From: a virus
DNA length: 29,232 bases
Virus record (IMG/VR): IMGVR_UViG_3300025697_000105
Span: 1-29,232 of that record
Reading direction: 5' to 3' (one strand)
In this document: positions 3,005 to 18,365 of the stretch, piece by piece
Layout: each line of letters opens with the position of its first letter
Numbering within the stretch: the stretch's first letter is position 1
Notes under the pieces: model-generated
Told to the model about the DNA's origin: nothing
Databases searched by the model: none
What the model saw: only the letters and a program-made list of their open reading frames with translations
Position numbers and translations under genes: made by a program

Positions 3005-3049
3005 AATTAACCATCGGCACCGTTCACGATACGAGCGGATAATTATATG
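3005..3049 (+). promoter_or_regulatory. Conserved leader element, copy A (hairpin 3020-3038)
   Basis: A 45-base stretch ending at the ATG of the 3047 gene is repeated with three mismatches at 3604-3648 in front of the 3646 gene. Its GC-rich core is unlike the surrounding A/T leaders. CCGTTC (3020-3025) can pair with GAGCGG (3033-3038), including one G-U pair, around the 7-base loop ACGATAC. The stem ends 8 bases before the ATG, so it would sit in the ribosome footprint. The hairpin bases are identical in both copies. A translational enhancer, protein-binding operator or RNA-stability element is possible. Confidence 0.65.
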
Positions 3050-3571
3050 GGAAATACAACAAAAACTCCAGAGGAGTTACAAACAGAAGCAAAAGCAGCG
3101 GTAGAAGTAAAACCTAAGGTAGAAGTAAAACCTAAGGTAGAAGTAAAACCTAAGGTAGAAGTAAAACCTGAGGTAGAAGTAAAACCTAAGGTTGAAAAAA
3201 AGAAAATAGTTATAAGGAATACTTCAGGAGAAGAGGTCCCTGCTAGTGATTATTTCAACAAAGGAATAATTGCTCCAGGATTCGAAGGGTCTTGTGGTGA
3301 ACCAGTAACTAGAAAGGATTTATTGTTAGTGTTTAACAAGGTTTTTAAGCCTTCTGACAATATTTTATTTTATAGACAGGTAGATAAGGAAGTTTATTTG
3401 GTGATTGTTCCAATTAAATATTCTGATTTAGTCGGTGATTCTGAAGATTCTATGGATGGGGATTTTCAAAAGCATGCTATTTCATTTTTAGATGAGGGCT
3501 CTGTAAATATGGATACATTGAGACAGAAATTAGAAAAAATGAAAAAATTTGTAAAATACGATGATAGATAG
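3047..3571 (+). CDS. Repeat-bearing acidic/basic head-region protein
   Basis: A 174-residue protein with a low-complexity N-terminus made of five tandem VEVKPK-type hexapeptides (residues about 19-48), followed by a folded region from about residue 50 with mixed alpha/beta character and a Lys-rich C-terminal helix (LRQKLEKMKKF). No family is recognised. The extended charged Pro-rich arm and the place next to the scaffold candidate suggest a capsid-assembly or internal head role. It shares its 45-base leader, including the hairpin, with the next gene, so the two are probably translated under the same control. The two N-termini are also alike in character (repeated V-E-K-P), hinting at a duplicated leader-plus-arm module. 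Confidence 0.75.
   Translation: MGNTTKTPEELQTEAKAAVEVKPKVEVKPKVEVKPKVEVKPEVEVKPKVEKKKIVIRNTSGEEVPASDYFNKGIIAPGFEGSCGEPVTRKDLLLVFNKVFKPSDNILFYRQVDKEVYLVIVPIKYSDLVGDSEDSMDGDFQKHAISFLDEGSVNMDTLRQKLEKMKKFVKYDDR
3101..3190 (+). repeat. Five tandem 18-bp units encoding VEVKPK
   Basis: Five consecutive copies of GTAGAAGTAAAACCTAAG run from 3101. The fourth has GAG instead of AAG at its end. Units are almost identical at the nucleotide level, which implies recent expansion by slippage or recombination. The unit is a multiple of three, so copy number can change without a frameshift. Confidence 0.95.
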
Positions 3572-3572
3572 T

Positions 3573-3601
3573 TTGCTTTTAGTTTTTAAAAGTCCTATAA
3601 T
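3573..3601 (+). promoter_or_regulatory. Promoter upstream of the scaffold candidate
   Basis: TTGCTT (3573-3578), a 17-base spacer and a perfect TATAAT (3596-3601) begin just after the stop of the 3047 gene. The predicted start is near 3608, so the transcript would open almost exactly with the conserved leader element at 3604-3648. The spacing and hexamers match the promoters at 92-120 and 15929-15957 apart from one base in the -35. It would add extra transcription for the scaffold and capsid genes, which are needed in high copy. Confidence 0.55.
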
Positions 3602-3603
3602 TA

Positions 3604-3648
3604 AATTAACCATCGGTACCGTTCACGATACGAGCGGATAAACATATG
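3604..3648 (+). promoter_or_regulatory. Conserved leader element, copy B (hairpin 3619-3637)
   Basis: Second copy of the element at 3005-3049, offset by exactly 599 bases and ending at the ATG of the 3646 gene. Differences are C/T at 3018/3617 and two bases just before the ATG. The hairpin CCGTTC-ACGATAC-GAGCGG is unchanged. In this copy CGGTACCG (3615-3622) is also a perfect palindrome, so an alternative fold exists. It lies directly downstream of a promoter. Confidence 0.65.
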
Positions 3649-4662
3649 GAAATAAAAAAAACAATAGAGACTGAAGCCCCAGTGGCTGAAGTTGTTGTTG
3701 ACCCAATAGTCGACAAAAAATCAGATGTTGAAGATGAATCAGAGTTAGACAAAACTCTCGAAGAATCAATAGCATCTGTCCAAGCTGGAAATGAGCTTGC
3801 TCCAACAGAGAAAGCCAAGGTTGAAGATCCAACGGGGGATACTCCTGAAGATATTAAACCGGAGGAACCAAAAGTTGAAGATCCAAAAGTTGAAAAACCT
3901 GTGGATCCTAAACAAGAGGACCCCAGCACTCCTCCAGTTGATGAAGAAAAACCGGCGGAATACGAATTTCGTGTCCCAAATAAAGGTAAGTTTGAATCTG
4001 ATGAGTCATTCGAGAAGCGTATAGAGCTTTTAGATTTAGTTAAAAGAAAAAAACTTGCTACAACCGATGAACAACGTCAACAATTATCAGACGAGATTAA
4101 GACCGCGAAGGGTCAAATGAAAAATCTTAATGGCGCTGATAGGTTTGTAAATCCACTGAATCAAAAAGTTGATGACAAACCAAAAACACCGGAAGAAGTT
4201 AAAGACAAAGATGATGCTTTAGAGGCTGACAAAGAACGCCTAAAGGAACTGGGTGGAGCGACCAAAGAGGATATCGCAGAGATAGTCCAACAGGAACGCC
4301 TTGCCGCAGATGTTAAAAGTACCTTAGATAATTTTGTTGGAAGACATTCCGAACTTAAAGATAGTGATACACGTGAAGTATTTTTCGACTTCGTTGATTC
4401 AAACTACGCTTGGCAAAACAAGGGTGGCAAAGATTTAATGACAGTCCTAGAACTTGCTCGTGAAAATATGTTTAAACCATCGGAGACTATTCAAGAAAGA
4501 GTATTGAAAGGTGCAAATGTTCAGGAGAAGGTCAATGCAATGCAATTCCCAGGTGGAACCGTTGCTAAGACTGATTACTCCCCAGAAATGCGTAGTTCGT
4601 TAGATGAGCTAATCAAGACTGGTATGTCAGAAGAAAAAGCTGTCGAGTTGATATCAGATTAG
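3646..4662 (+). CDS. Capsid scaffolding protein candidate
   Basis: Scaffolding proteins guide assembly of the major capsid protein and usually lie upstream of it. This 338-residue protein is highly acidic and Pro/Glu/Lys-rich for its first 110 residues, then largely helical and charged (KRIELLDLVKRKK, TTDEQRQQLSDEIKTAKGQM, VQQERLAADVKSTLDNF). It has no membrane segment and a C-terminal helical tail (SSLDELIKTGMSEEKAVELI) of the sort that contacts coat protein. Together with its position one structural gene before decoration and coat proteins, this fits a scaffold. It has its own promoter and the conserved hairpin leader. Stop is TAG. No enzymatic motif is seen. The alternative is an internal head protein. 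Confidence 0.6.
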   Translation: MEIKKTIETEAPVAEVVVDPIVDKKSDVEDESELDKTLEESIASVQAGNELAPTEKAKVEDPTGDTPEDIKPEEPKVEDPKVEKPVDPKQEDPSTPPVDEEKPAEYEFRVPNKGKFESDESFEKRIELLDLVKRKKLATTDEQRQQLSDEIKTAKGQMKNLNGADRFVNPLNQKVDDKPKTPEEVKDKDDALEADKERLKELGGATKEDIAEIVQQERLAADVKSTLDNFVGRHSELKDSDTREVFFDFVDSNYAWQNKGGKDLMTVLELARENMFKPSETIQERVLKGANVQEKVNAMQFPGGTVAKTDYSPEMRSSLDELIKTGMSEEKAVELISD

Positions 4663-4666
4663 TCTT

Positions 4667-5137
4667 ATGAAAAAGATTAAACTGACAAAAGGTAAATATA
4701 CTTTAGTTGACAATGACGATTACGAGATACTTAACAATTATAAATGGTATGCAAAAAGAGGTACAAACACTTTTTATGCAGCTCGTTCAATCTTAAATAA
4801 AGATGGTAATCAAAAAACTATCAGGATGCACAGATTATTAATGGATGCACCAGATAGTTTAGAAGTTGACCACAAAGATGGGAACGGACTTAATAATCAG
4901 AGGTCTAATATTAGATTGGCTACCAAATCCCAGAACAGGATGAATAGACCTAAACAGTCTAGAAATATATCCGGTTTTAAAGGAGTCTCTTGGGATAAAA
5001 TCCATAGAGCTTGGATAGCTTATATAACATTAGATGGTGTACAAAAAAATCTTGGCTACTTTAAAAGTAAACAAGAGGCATACCAACATCGTTGTAAAGT
5101 AAGTATTGAATATCACAAAGAATTTACTCACAACTAA
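4667..5137 (+). CDS. HNH homing endonuclease with AP2 DNA-binding domain
   Basis: A 156-residue free-standing homing endonuclease of the HNH-AP2 class common in phages. The HNH core is around residues 53-93: His55 in MHRLL, Asp68-His69 in EVDHKDG, Asn74 and Asn77 in NGLNNQRSNIRLAT, with all expected residues present. The AP2 domain follows at about 101-152 (SGFKGVSWDKIHRAWIAYI, then LGYFKSKQEAYQHR). Such enzymes nick or cut near their own insertion site and spread their gene. It starts 4 bases after the scaffold stop and splits the scaffold/decoration/coat cluster, as expected of a mobile insertion. It appears intact. No intron is evident, since both neighbours look complete. Confidence 0.93.
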   Translation: MKKIKLTKGKYTLVDNDDYEILNNYKWYAKRGTNTFYAARSILNKDGNQKTIRMHRLLMDAPDSLEVDHKDGNGLNNQRSNIRLATKSQNRMNRPKQSRNISGFKGVSWDKIHRAWIAYITLDGVQKNLGYFKSKQEAYQHRCKVSIEYHKEFTHN

Positions 5138-5145
5138 ACTTCTAT

Positions 5146-5159
5146 CGGATTAAATAATC
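5146..5159 (+). other. Small hairpin upstream of the decoration gene
   Basis: GGATT (5146-5150) pairs with AATCC (5155-5159) around a 4-base loop, in the 40-base gap after the HNH gene. It is followed by only a short T run. It may be a weak terminator for the inserted HNH gene or a leader structure for the decoration gene; support is slight. Confidence 0.3.
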
Positions 5160-5177
5160 CTTTAACAGATAATTAAT

Positions 5178-5591
5178 ATGGCAACTGTAAAACAGGCTAC
5201 CATAAAAAACACAAGAGAATTGCGTGACGAAAACAAAGCAACAGGAACTGTGATGACATTAGGAAATATCCTAGCTCAAACAGCAGGTCTTGCTGTTGAC
5301 GCTGACAGTGGAACTGTTGTAGCTGATTTGTTAGGTGTTTGTAATCAAACAATTTCAGTCGCAGACGCATTAACTCGTGTTCAAGTGATAAAGCCTTCAG
5401 ACGAAGATACATTTATCTTCGCTGTAACAAACAACTCCGATGCTACTCATAATGGGCAAGCAATGGTTTTAACTGATGCGACAGAAGTAAATAATACTGG
5501 TACAACTTCTGGTACTGGAATCGTACAGCAAGTCGAACCGTACGGAGAAGCTTCAGATAAACTTATTATCGGAAGATTTTTGACTTTATAA
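5178..5591 (+). CDS. Capsid decoration / head auxiliary protein candidate
   Basis: A 137-residue soluble protein rich in Ala, Thr, Val and Asn with an alternating beta-strand pattern (GTVMTLGNILAQTAGLAVD, NGQAMVLTDATEVNNTG). Small beta-rich proteins encoded immediately before the major capsid gene are often head decoration or cement proteins that bind the outside of the shell. It starts after a 40-base gap and ends 21 bases before the coat gene. No signal peptide or catalytic motif is present. The assignment is by size, composition and synteny. Confidence 0.5.
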   Translation: MATVKQATIKNTRELRDENKATGTVMTLGNILAQTAGLAVDADSGTVVADLLGVCNQTISVADALTRVQVIKPSDEDTFIFAVTNNSDATHNGQAMVLTDATEVNNTGTTSGTGIVQQVEPYGEASDKLIIGRFLTL

Positions 5592-7994: not shown

Positions 7995-10043
7995 ATGGCA
8001 TATCTAGCAAATAAATTAGGCGACCCGAATAATTTAGGATGGTTTGCTACACCAGCAGCTCTTAATATTGCCTACCCAGTTGGTGCAGATGGTTATTTTG
8101 CTATGGTAGGTTCAACTGATTCAATATGGACTTGGGACTCAGATACTAGCGCTTGGGTTGATACTAAAACAACTGGACCAATAGGACCAACTGGCCCTAC
8201 AGGTTATACAGGTTACACTGGATATACAGGTTATACTGGAGCTGATTCAACTGTTATTGGTCCTACAGGTTATACAGGAAGCGGTGATACTGGTCCTACT
8301 GGTTATACTGGTTCTCAAGGAGAAACTGGTTATACAGGCTATACAGGAAGTGGTGATACTGGTCCTACTGGATATACTGGACTTCAAGGAGCAACAGGAT
8401 ACACTGGAGATACAGGAGCTGACTCAACAGTAACTGGTCCAACTGGTTACACTGGTCCAACTGGATATACTGGTGATTCAGGAACTGATTCAAATGTTAC
8501 AGGTCCTACTGGTTACACAGGTTCAACTGGATATACAGGTTATACTGGGCTAGCAGGAGCTGGCATTGATTGGAAAGGTACTTGGGAAATTGGAACAAAT
8601 TATGTTATTGATACTGGTGTTTATGATGCAGTTGCTTGGGAAGGTAATTCTTATATAACAAATATTGATGATAATATAGGTAACGAACCACCAGATGCTA
8701 CTTGGGATTTATGGGTAGCACAAGGTCCAACTGGTTATACAGGTCCAACTGGTTACACTGGTCCAACTGGTTACACTGGTCCAACTGGTTACACTGGCCC
8801 AACTGGTTATACAGGTGATTCTGGTACTGACTCTAATGTAACAGGATACACTGGTTATACTGGCTTCACAGGTTACACTGGTTATACTGGTTATACAGGT
8901 CCAGATGGTGGAACAGGACAATTTGGTGGTTACTCCGCTAAATGGAATTTTGATACCAGTACAGCAGCTGAAACAACTGATGATCCTGGAACTGGAGATA
9001 TAAGATTTAATAGCGCGACATCTTCAAGTGTTACAGAAATGGTTATTAGTCAGACTGATGCTGATAGTAATAATATGCAAGAGTTTCTACTTTCTTTAGT
9101 CGGTGCTGGAGCAGCAGAACCTGATTATGGATTTATAAAATTCTTTAGTGTTGCTACTCCTAATACTAAATTCTGGAATGGAAAAATTACTACGGTTGCT
9201 GATCAAGGAGATTATTTTTGGATAGAAGTTACATATATTACTCACGGTGGTGGTGACCCTCCATTTTCGAATGGGGATCCTATTGTTTTAACATTTTCTC
9301 CAAGAGGAGATATTGGTTATACAGGTTACACAGGTCCAATCGGTTCTACTGGCTATACTGGGTATACAGGTGATTCTGGTGCTGATTCAACGGTAACTGG
9401 TCCAACTGGTTATACAGGTTACACAGGCCCAATAGGTCCTACTGGCTACACAGGTGATGATGGAGCGGATTCTACAGTAACTGGTCCTACTGGCTATACT
9501 GGATATACCGGTTTTACAGGGTACACTGGTTATTCAGGAGCTGATTCAACAGTTATTGGTCCAACTGGTTATACTGGTCCAATTGGTCCTACTGGCTATA
9601 CAGGCGATTCTGGAGCTGATTCAACAGTTACTGGCTATACTGGCTATACTGGTTATACGGGTTATACTGGTCCTGAATCAGTGACTCTTACTAATACAGT
9701 TACTCTTACGAATAAAACAATTACAAATAGAGTATTAACATTTACTACGGATGCAACTCCAGAAGTGGATTCAGATGATTATGATGTGGTTACAATAACA
9801 GCACAAGATGCAGCAATTACAGATGTTGATATGGTTGGTACTGCTGAAACTAACTTTCAGAAAATAATATTTAGAATAAAAGATGATGGTACGGCAAGAG
9901 CAATAGCTTGGGGAGATGATTTTGAGGCAAAAGGAGTTGCGTTACCTACTACTACGGTTATAAGCAAGGTTCTTACGGTTGGATTTATTTATGACACTGT
10001 TACTGCAAAATGGGGATGTGTAGCAGTTGCTAATGAAATTTAA
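7995..10043 (+). CDS. Collagen-like tail/head fibre protein
   Basis: A 682-residue modular fibre. Residues 1-60 form an N-terminal anchor domain of the type seen in phage structural proteins ([19 protein letters not shown]). Three Gly-X-Y collagen segments follow at about 61-190, 244-312 and 438-560, dominated by GPT and GYT triplets. Between them are a small aromatic domain (192-240, [15 protein letters not shown]) resembling carbohydrate-binding CBM5/12-like modules, and a beta domain (313-437). Residues 561-682 form a C-terminal knob ([19 protein letters not shown]) of a kind used for trimerisation and receptor binding. It is almost certainly a trimeric surface fibre. The Thr-rich triplets are candidate O-glycosylation sites, relevant to the glycosyltransferase fusion at 12889. 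Confidence 0.85.
8175..8564 (+). repeat. Collagen-like repeat region 1
   Basis: Imperfect 9-bp Gly-X-Thr units encoding about 43 triplets, mainly GPT and GYT, interrupted by short spacers such as GADSTV and GSGD. Synonymous codons for Gly, Pro, Tyr and Thr vary along the array (GGA/GGT, CCA/CCT, ACA/ACT), which keeps DNA identity below protein identity. Confidence 0.9.
8724..8930 (+). repeat. Collagen-like repeat region 2 with near-identical 18-mers
   Basis: Begins with tandem copies of GGTCCAACTGGTTACACT encoding GPTGYT, at least three of them identical, then a more divergent GYT run. The perfect copies suggest recent local expansion, in contrast to the more diverged segments 1 and 3. Confidence 0.9.
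9306..9674 (+). repeat. Collagen-like repeat region 3
   Basis: Gly-X-Y array of about 40 triplets, mostly GYT with GPT and GPI, broken by a recurring spacer G(D/A)SGADSTVTG. The same spacer occurs in region 1, so the higher-order unit is a block of collagen triplets plus spacer, duplicated within the gene. Confidence 0.9.
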
Positions 10044-15988: not shown

Positions 15989-17380
15989 ATGTACCCTCAA
16001 ATAAAAATTATAAACAATATAGGGAACACTATTGATATTCCAAATGAGTTGGATGTTAAAGCTTCTACTTATTTGAGTAGCAATATTGTTGCTGGAGTGT
16101 TAGCCGTCCCTGCGGATAACACAGTTGATTTTACCTCTACTGCATCAACTTTATTGTTGTTATCGTCAGTAGGTGCTGAAAATGCTGAAATAGTAACTTC
16201 AGCTTCACACACTGCGCAATCATTTGTAACTTTAGCTACAGTAATGGCTCATAATCGCGGTGATGTTATTAGTGAATTGAAATGGGATCAAATAGTTGTA
16301 TCAAAAAGCGCGACAATTGATGGAGTTTATGTTGTTTTCGCTACTCAAACTATTTTTACTACACAGCAAAAAACTACTATATATGACATAACTGGTCTAG
16401 GTACTGATTATTACAAGATTCAGTGGAAAAATTCGCTTACCGGATTACTTTCAGATTTTTCTACTGCTATAAGCGTTGATGCTTATCCAACAAATTCAGT
16501 TTCTTCTGTTATCTATCCAGTGTTGAAAGCAATGGGAGTAAGTGAAGAAGATAAAAGAATTACAATTCCATTTTGTATAGCAGCTATCAATGATGCAAGA
16601 AAATTTACTCACGCTAAACTTTATGGTATTCGTCATGCCTGGCAACAAAAGTTTGAATATCCAATTAAAATATTAGCTGGAAGTAACTATGTTGACTTGC
16701 CTACCGATATAGATTTTATAGAAACGGACAGGTCTGTTTTAGCTGCTAGATTTTTGGTTGATAATATATTAACACCATTTAATTTGAGATATATCGATAA
16801 ACGTTCCTGGAATCAGATTGCATTTTCAACAACCGGAGGAACAACTTCAGAGGTTACTTTAACCGGAGCTGTATCGATTACATTTGATAGTGTGGGAGAT
16901 TTTCCTGACAGTGCCTCGGGTGTGGCATATGTTGCAACGACAGCTTATACGCAGGATATTGAAGAAATAGCGTACACCTCTATAGATTTAACAACAAATC
17001 AACTTTTAGGAGTAACAGGAATAACTCGTGATATCCCGTCTGGGACTAGGGTTTGGTCGAGACCCACAATTTCACAGCCTATCTACTATACTGTTTTTGA
17101 TGACAAATTGTATTTTGATCGAATAGTTCCTGATTCAATGCAGGGGAATAACCTCTATATTGATTACTACAAAAAAATTGATGAAGTTGTAAGTCTTTCT
17201 GTGGAGCTTCCAGAGCATTACAGAGAAATTTATAAATGGTATCTACGTTATGCTATCAAGTATCGTAAAGATACTTCACTTGATAGTAAGGATCCTGATT
17301 TGAAGAAATTCGAGGATTTGGTGCAAGCCTTATTTAACAATCTTTATACCGGACAAGATACTACAATTATTACAAGTTAA
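15989..17380 (+). CDS. Head-to-tail adaptor protein candidate
   Basis: A 463-residue virion protein. The first 90 residues are beta-rich, followed at about 95-165 by a fibronectin-III/Ig-like segment ([33 protein letters not shown]). From about 171 a helical stretch ([20 protein letters not shown]) and the C-terminal helices ([20 protein letters not shown]) resemble the adaptor proteins that bind under the portal in podoviruses (P22 gp4 / T7 gp11-like). The order adaptor, then gp10-like hub supports the call. It has its own promoter. The Ig-like insertion would protrude from the neck and may bind the cell surface. Confidence 0.6.
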
Positions 17381-17390
17381 AAATAAAATT

Positions 17391-18365
17391 ATGGCATTTA
17401 TTAATCCGCTGATTCCTTTAGTTGATATTCAACAACAGGAACAGCCTGACAATACAAGTTCATATCAGTTAGTTACCTTTGGTACCGTAACTGGTGGAAC
17501 ACCTTACGCTGGTGCGACATATGCAAATGTTTTTGCATTAGAGTGCATACTTCAAGATTTAGATGGTTCAGCTGTTTACCAAATGACAGGCACAGTTGCA
17601 GTCCCAGCATGGACAGCAATTGGTGCTGGTGCTGCTGGTTCAACTGGCTACACTGGTCCAACTGGTTATACTGGTCCAACTGGTTATACTGGTCCAACTG
17701 GTGACACAGGTTACACAGGTTACACAGGTGCAGGCGATACAGGTCCAACTGGTTACACAGGTCCTGTAGGAGCTACTTCAGCTACTGGTGCAACAGGTGA
17801 CACTGGTGACACAGGTTACACTGGTTTTACTGGTGATACTGGTTACACAGGTCCTGATGGCCCTACTGGCTACACTGGCTACACTGGTCCAATTGGGCCT
17901 CAAGGTGTTACTGGCTATACTGGTTTTACTGGATATACTGGCTATACAGGCCCTACTGGTTATACTGGTGACGATGGAGCTGCTTCAGCTACTGGTGCAA
18001 CAGGATATACTGGTTATACTGGTCCTACTGGTTATACTGGTCCTACTGGCTATACTGGTTATTCAGGAGCTGATTCTTCTGTTACTGGCTATACTGGTCC
18101 TACTGGATATACTGGTCCTACTGGAATTACTACAGTTGTAAACGAAATTGTTACAACAACTGGTGGTGGCGCTACTGAAAATCTTTCAGCTGGTGACTTC
18201 GCTAGTGTTGCTGCTACTGATACAGTTTTTGCTACTTTAGTTAACAACGGTGGAAATAATGTTTCCATTCTATCAGTTGAAGCTAATATCGGTTCTGTTG
18301 ATATTACTTTCTCTGGCGATCCTTCAAGCGATACAATTCTAAATGTGTTGGTTCTTACTCCGTAA
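17391..18365 (+). CDS. Second collagen-like fibre protein
   Basis: A 324-residue modular protein. Residues 1-82 are an N-terminal domain ([20 protein letters not shown]) different from that of the 7995 fibre. Residues about 83-245 are Gly-X-Y collagen, again mostly GPT and GYT, including three near-identical 18-bp units at its start. Residues 246-324 are a small beta C-terminal domain ([19 protein letters not shown]) that could trimerise the stalk. It lies between the adaptor and the hub genes, so it may be a neck or collar whisker. Shared triplet style with the 7995 gene suggests both are made and perhaps modified together. Confidence 0.82.
17636..18127 (+). repeat. Collagen-like repeat region of the second fibre
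   Basis: About 54 Gly-X-Y triplets with tandem GGTCCAACTGGTTATACT at the beginning and more diverged codons later. Spacers [10 protein letters not shown] and GADSSVTG resemble those in the 7995 gene, so cassettes may have moved between the two genes by recombination. Confidence 0.9.

What the first reader, a model, noticed from the sequence alone, without database searches (positions are those of the whole stretch)
3005..3648. Duplicated 45-bp leader with invariant hairpin before two head genes
Two copies (3005-3049 and 3604-3648) differ at only three positions, while the rest of the neighbouring intergenic DNA does not match. The GC-rich core CCGTTC-ACGATAC-GAGCGG forms a stem with 7-base loop, unlike every other leader here, and ends 8 bases before ATG. 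Copy B begins right where its promoter would start transcription. In a genome without Shine-Dalgarno sites, this could be a structured ribosome-recruiting or coat/scaffold-binding RNA.
Basis: partly seen in the sequence, partly recalled or inferred. Interest (0 to 1): 0.7.

Follow-up and report, generated by a model that had tools for sequence, protein, structure and literature searches.

The report
Pseudoknot RNA leader of phage genes
Two neighbouring head-region genes of an uncultivated phage family each start with the same small knotted RNA fold just before the start codon; the fold is conserved through base-pair swaps in about 90 relatives, so it is probably a switch controlling how much of these two proteins is made.

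Summary
In detail: two 45-nt copies (3005-3049, 3604-3648), 42/45 identical, each ending 8 nt before an ATG, with no third copy in the window. It is not a private duplication. About 90 distinct relatives from viral metagenomes carry the element before the same two genes (A, 3047; B, 3646) and before no other gene family. The stem is kept by many compensatory and wobble changes. A search that fixed only the unpaired bases found 71 family members: 66 had all six pairs and 5 had five. In divergent relatives gene A carries a second version with different sequence and the same layout. There the knot helix covaries (CCU:AGG, CCC:GGG, CCG:CGG). One B leader also switched its knot helix to CCC:GGG. 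Gene A's leader changed version at least five times on the tree, and the two copies in one genome tend to resemble each other. No Rfam family matches. Best reading: a cis-acting translational operator, probably feedback control by a head-assembly protein (B is scaffold-like by position and shape only). The RNA fold is well supported; the regulator, direction of control and host are unknown.

The parts
3005..3049 (+). copy A of the leader element, before gene A
3013..3016 (+). copy A pseudoknot helix S1, 5' strand (AUCG), pairs with 3027-3030
   Evidence: complementarity in sequence; S1 covariation in relatives
3020..3025 (+). copy A stem S2, 5' strand (CCGUUC), pairs with 3033-3038
   Evidence: covariation
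3026..3032 (+). copy A conserved loop ACGAUAC; 3027-3030 is the S1 3' strand
3033..3038 (+). copy A stem S2, 3' strand (GAGCGG), ends 8 nt before the ATG
3047..3571 (+). gene A (174 aa): variable low-complexity N-terminus, conserved C-terminal domain of about 120 aa, function unknown
3573..3601 (+). sigma70-like promoter TTGCTT-17-TATAAT before copy B; a -10-like box is present before B in 83 of 89 relatives and before A in 7 of 89
3604..3648 (+). copy B of the leader element, before gene B
3612..3615 (+). copy B pseudoknot helix S1, 5' strand (AUCG), pairs with 3626-3629
   Evidence: as copy A
3619..3637 (+). copy B stem S2 (3619-3624 with 3632-3637) and loop 3625-3631
3646..4662 (+). gene B (338 aa): acidic, predicted all-helical with disordered N-terminal half; candidate scaffolding protein by position before the candidate capsid gene
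   Evidence: shape only; no family match

Best explanation
The element is a roughly 28-nt H-type RNA pseudoknot in the mRNA leaders of genes A and B: S1 AUCG:CGAU, a 3-nt linker, S2 of 6 bp, and an A-rich second crossing loop. It ends about 8 nt before the AUG. Shown: the RNA fold, its restriction to these two genes, its conserved distance to the start codon, and its conservation across the phage family. Inferred: a knot ending 8 nt before the start codon lies inside the area an initiating ribosome must occupy, so when it is stabilised it should block initiation, and when it melts initiation proceeds. It would thus set the output of A and B together. The most likely trans-acting factor is one of the two products or a partner in head assembly (B, the scaffold-like protein, first), binding the knot when in excess.
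For: S2 covaries: 94.4% of cells paired against 77.8% in shuffles, covariation score 0.484 against 0.162 (0 of 500 shuffles), collapsing when slid. The one-nt-bulge form is 99% paired. With only unpaired bases fixed, 66 of 71 family hits keep all 6 pairs and 5 keep 5; the chance hits have 0-4. Wobbles are G-U on the mRNA strand (8 against 1 A-C), pointing to RNA of this strand. S1: in version 2, 26 of 28 distinct leaders can form it against 15.8 expected on re-pairing (maximum 24 in 10,000), with CCU:AGG, CCC:GGG, CCG:CGG, CCUC:GAGG and ACCC:GGGU. In version 1, L106 and L355 change the fifth S1 pair U-A to C-G, and the B leader of L347 has switched to CCC:GGG. Specific to A and B: 74 of 83 pseudoknot-descriptor hits among 997 ORFs; 88 of 88 model hits in 564 kb lie in the coding sense and, by their coordinates, at the A and B leaders. 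The version before gene A changed at least 5 times on the tree, so versions 1 and 2 look interchangeable. A and B cores are identical in 18 of 51 genomes against 1.6 expected. A phage precedent exists: the T4 gene 32 leader pseudoknot is an autogenous operator (PMC3014915).
Against: No binding partner was identified, and the identity of A and B is not established by homology or fold. In near relatives the inner S1 pairs CG:CG never vary, and the U-A pair is broken in 8 of 39 version-1 cores; L321 B, L318 B and L376 B fit S1 poorly. In 31 or more genomes A and B carry different versions, so one specific binder of both must read shape rather than sequence. The permutation tests do not correct for relatedness.
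Confidence: 0.5

Rival explanations
1. The pseudoknot is a positive translation element: in a host or phage that does not use Shine-Dalgarno sites it helps the ribosome find the start codon of two genes needed in large amounts.
For: Shine-Dalgarno-like sites are missing before nearly all window genes; the element sits at a fixed distance from AUG.
Against: Every other gene, including the candidate capsid gene, lacks the element and presumably translates without it. A stable GC-rich knot inside the initiation region normally hinders a 30S subunit.
Confidence: 0.2
2. It responds to a host factor, temperature or a small molecule rather than to a phage product, for instance timing late genes by cell state.
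For: Small H-type pseudoknots with an invariant core are used as ligand-binding switches (preQ1-I class; own knowledge). The core ACGAUAC is nearly invariant in version 1.
Against: It controls only two adjacent structural-region genes; no metabolic gene and no bacterial genome carries it (the one true hit is a phage contig; the other four hits lack the A+T-rich leader context). No Rfam match. Version 2 has a different core sequence.
Confidence: 0.13
3. It is a 5'-end stabiliser or processing signal: B's mRNA would start at the element, and the knot would protect the 5' end from nucleases.
For: The predicted B transcript begins at the element; TATAAT ends 8 nt before CCATCG in most relatives that have it.
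Against: Copy A has no promoter in front in most genomes (7 of 89 with a -10-like box) and lies inside an operon, yet it is equally conserved and equally close to its ATG.
Confidence: 0.12
4. It is a DNA-level site (operator, promoter part or recombination site) whose inverted repeat matters as DNA.
For: An inverted repeat next to a promoter in copy B.
Against: U-G wobbles that pair only on the mRNA strand, bulges, and pseudoknot covariation; the element is always in the coding sense just before an ATG.
Confidence: 0.03
5. It is a recent duplication without function.
For: The two copies are 93% identical here, and cores are often identical within a genome.
Against: Family-wide conservation with compensatory changes while the flanks diverge; repeated version switches before gene A.
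Confidence: 0.02

Closest known systems
T4/T2/RB69 gene 32 mRNA pseudoknot (autogenous translational operator; PMC3014915)
   Same: Phage mRNA leader, H-type pseudoknot, in front of a gene whose product is a plausible regulator.
   Different: There the knot is far upstream (described as 67 nt upstream of the start codon) and nucleates cooperative binding over an A+U-rich stretch; here it ends about 8 nt before AUG, occurs twice per genome, serves head-region genes and has an unrelated sequence.
E. coli rpsO (ribosomal protein S15) leader pseudoknot
   Same: A pseudoknot in the translational operator of an autogenously regulated gene (noted in PMC3014915; that it lies at the start site is own knowledge).
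   Different: Cellular gene, Shine-Dalgarno-dependent, unrelated sequence; no regulator is known here.
Phage P22 scaffolding protein autoregulation
   Same: Unassembled scaffold is known to turn down its own synthesis after transcription (own knowledge; no open paper found).
   Different: As far as I recall no P22 RNA structure has been assigned; no sequence relation was tested or seen.
preQ1-I class riboswitch
   Same: Very small H-type pseudoknot close to the start codon (own knowledge).
   Different: No Rfam match; the genes are phage structural-region genes, not queuosine genes.
c4 antisense RNA, manA, wcaG and STAXI motifs (phage or pseudoknot RNAs of PMC2864571)
   Same: Structured RNAs found by comparative genomics, partly in phages; STAXI is built of repeated pseudoknots.
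   Different: Different genes and settings; Rfam, which includes several of these motifs, gave no hit.

Membership tests
Any Rfam 15 RNA family | covariance-model match at the gathering score | tested here: not met
   no match in the window or in 8 relatives
H-type pseudoknot leader RNA | two helices in crossed order, each supported by compensatory change | tested here: met
   S2. S1: (version 2), L106, L355 and L347 for version 1; weaker in version 1, where the inner CG:CG pairs never vary
Autogenous phage translational operator (T4 gene 32 kind) | the RNA lies in the leader of the gene it controls and overlaps or adjoins the initiation region | tested here: met
   the fold ends 8 nt before AUG in the window and near that distance in relatives
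Autogenous phage translational operator (T4 gene 32 kind) | the gene product binds the RNA and represses its translation | not testable with these tools
   needs binding and translation assays
Autogenous phage translational operator (T4 gene 32 kind) | knot followed by an unstructured A+U-rich tract with UUAA(A) repeats for cooperative binding | tested here: not met
   only an 8-nt spacer between knot and AUG
Scaffolding protein (gene B) | sequence or fold match to a known phage scaffold | tested here: inconclusive
   no Pfam, PHROG or PDB-sequence match; all-helical model of low confidence; structure-library search of B was unavailable
Riboswitch | binds a metabolite and controls metabolic genes | tested here: inconclusive
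   ligand binding not testable; gene context is phage structural region only

The most novel reading that the evidence does not exclude
A new family of phage pseudoknot operators through which a head-assembly (scaffold-like) protein senses its own unassembled pool and shuts off two adjacent genes. It would be a concrete RNA target for scaffold autoregulation, with two interchangeable sequence versions of one three-dimensional shape.
Probability: 0.35. Interest if true: 0.8.

Novelty: new variant of a known kind. Interest (0 to 1): 0.62.

Why it matters
[quoted passage not shown] Here is a family of about 90 phage genomes, none matching a cultured phage at the sensitivity used, in which an unrelated pseudoknot is kept at two structural-region genes through extensive covariation and repeated swaps between two sequence versions. 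It gives a ready-made natural mutational series for asking how a 28-nt knot controls initiation without a Shine-Dalgarno site, and it makes the old question of how phages meter their assembly proteins directly testable.

Tried and rejected
Folding energy as evidence: not significant (z about -1.2), so not used. Rfam families: none; a sub-threshold SNORD45 hit at 2900-2942 is chance. Bacterial origin or host-borne copies: one scan of 84,980 species genomes gave four hits that look like chance and one phage contig in a 1.2-Mb Dehalococcoidia MAG, too weak to name the host. Cultured phage relatives: none for portal-like, candidate capsid or B proteins. Pseudoknots before other genes: 9 of 83 descriptor hits, in no recurrent family. 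A literature search for P22 scaffold autoregulation in open papers found nothing usable. The 2017 set of 224 candidate RNAs was not held, so absence from it rests on Rfam alone.

Full report
What is there. The window is a 29-kb fragment of an uncultivated phage genome. The two 45-nt copies at 3005-3049 and 3604-3648 are 42/45 identical, and the core CCGTTCACGATACGAGCGG occurs nowhere else even with three mismatches. Copy A precedes a 174-aa ORF (gene A, 3047), copy B a 338-aa ORF (gene B, 3646). A pseudoknot descriptor run over all window ORF starts finds only these two. Copy B is preceded by TTGCTT-17-TATAAT, and TATAAT lies 8 nt before CCATCG in most relatives that have it; a -10-like box precedes B in 83 of 89 genomes but A in only 7. 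The element is therefore not part of a promoter; it is what the two leaders share.

It is a family, not a local repeat. A DNA pattern that left the middle of the stem free hit 72 viral stretches; in about half of them it lies before gene A or B homologues with the same A+T-rich context, the rest being GC-rich chance matches. Protein searches with B and A and their alignments gave 89 distinct genomes with both genes (a few are near-copies, and the window itself is among them). Nearly all have before B a structured leader of the type seen in the window (called version 1 here).

S2 is real RNA pairing. On 39 distinct ungapped cores, 94.4% of stem cells pair against 77.8% in shuffles; four of six pairs change on both sides; the covariation score is 0.484 against 0.162, and it falls to 0.205 or less when the partner is slid. 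A form with one bulged base in the 3' strand is 99% paired. The cleanest test fixed only the unpaired parts (TAACCATCG-N9-ACGATAC) and left the stem free: 71 family hits, 66 with all six pairs (36 plain, 30 bulged) and five with five; the chance hits had 0-4. Wobbles are of the kind that pairs on the mRNA strand (8 G-U against 1 A-C).

S1 makes it a pseudoknot. The nearly invariant upstream AUCG is complementary to CGAU in the loop, giving S1 (4 bp), a 3-nt linker, S2 (6 bp), a junction A and a 2-nt loop. This is a standard H-type geometry (inference from geometry; not modelled in 3D). In close relatives the inner two S1 pairs do not vary, so they say nothing; the A-U pair holds in 37 of 39 and the U-A pair in 31 of 39. 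The evidence comes from further away. When the linker begins with U, S1 extends by a U-A pair; L106 and L355, on separate branches, have C-G there instead. The B leader of L302 turns U-A into A-U but loses the outermost pair. The B leader of L347, whose start codon is a little downstream of the first ATG, keeps AACCAU and the spacer but has S1 = CCC:GGG around a different S2.

A second version. In 31 or more genomes gene A has a different leader, AAGAACCC-NN-[stem]-AGGAUA-[stem]-spacer-AUG (version 2). With the loop as the only anchor, its stem pairs in 122 of 135 cells against 82 expected (maximum 97 in 10,000 shuffles). Its first three loop bases are complementary to the upstream C-rich tract in 26 of 28 distinct leaders against 15.8 expected (maximum 24 in 10,000), through CCU:AGG, CCC:GGG, CCG:CGG and longer pairings. 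In one search the hairpins themselves were chosen by pairing, so that test bears on S1 only. Version 2 thus has the same crossed layout, nearly the same distance to AUG and a shared GAUA-like loop end, but a different sequence. On the B-protein tree the version before gene A changes at least five times, two of them forced by well-supported branches. Where both leaders are version 1, the cores are identical in 18 of 51 genomes against 1.6 on re-pairing (maximum 7), and A-B distance within a genome is smaller than to the nearest relative (p = 0.006). Either the short tract is copied between the sites or both are tuned to the same partner; this analysis cannot separate the two.

Specificity. Among 997 ORFs of family loci the descriptor fires 83 times, 74 of them at A or B; the other nine form no recurrent gene family. 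A covariance model built from 39 cores finds 88 places in 564 kb, all in the coding sense and at coordinates matching the A and B leaders. One scan of 84,980 bacterial and archaeal species genomes found no cellular copy: four hits lacking the leader context, and one phage contig in a MAG.

The genes. A and B have no Pfam, PHROG or PDB-sequence relatives (the weak PHROG hits vary between members and include tail-fibre families, which I read as low-complexity matches to the N-terminus). B is acidic, predicted helical with a disordered N-terminal half, and lies shortly before the candidate capsid gene, which is where phages with an SU10-type adaptor (15989) carry their scaffold; the kuravirus-like phage Privateer has portal, scaffold and capsid accessions in that order (PMC7881722). 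That is a lead, not an identification. A has a conserved 120-aa domain without a fold match.

How it most likely works. A knot ending about 8 nt before AUG sits where the 30S subunit must bind. The simplest mechanism is that the knot, when stabilised, blocks initiation at A and B and so sets their output; the stabiliser would be a phage head-assembly protein in excess. The fold, specificity and position are shown; repression and the identity of the binder are inferred. The main alternative, a ribosome-recruiting element, is weakened by its absence from all other genes in a genome that equally lacks Shine-Dalgarno sites.

Novelty. No Rfam family matches. The nearest precedent is the T4 gene 32 leader pseudoknot, an autogenous operator that a 2010 review called possibly the only viral pseudoknot used for translational autoregulation (PMC3014915). 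The present element differs in sequence, distance to AUG, copy number and target genes. I rate it a new variant of a known kind.

Limits.

Noticed in passing
4667-5137: An HNH endonuclease gene (PHROG E 9e-36) sits between gene B and the next head-region gene; probably a homing-type insertion.
   Followed up: no
7995-10043 and 17391-18365: Two ORFs with long collagen-like GPTGYTG repeats sharing DNA-level repeats 9 kb apart.
   Followed up: no
3103-3192: 18-bp tandem repeat VEVKPK in the variable N-terminus of gene A; this N-terminus differs in length and composition between relatives.
   Followed up: no
5147-5160: Perfect palindrome GGATTAAATAATCC 17 nt before the ATG of the 137-aa ORF at 5178; not compared with relatives.
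   Followed up: no
15989-17380: SU10-type adaptor protein match (Pfam PF24175, E 6e-7), placing the phage near podovirus-like SU10 relatives although no cultured phage matches the portal-like, candidate capsid or B proteins.
   Followed up: partly
L143 3695-3722, L149 (match at 4881-4908): Unrelated contigs with a GC-rich hairpin around CACGATAC and a CCATCG upstream, by chance or convergence; not before gene A or B.
   Followed up: no
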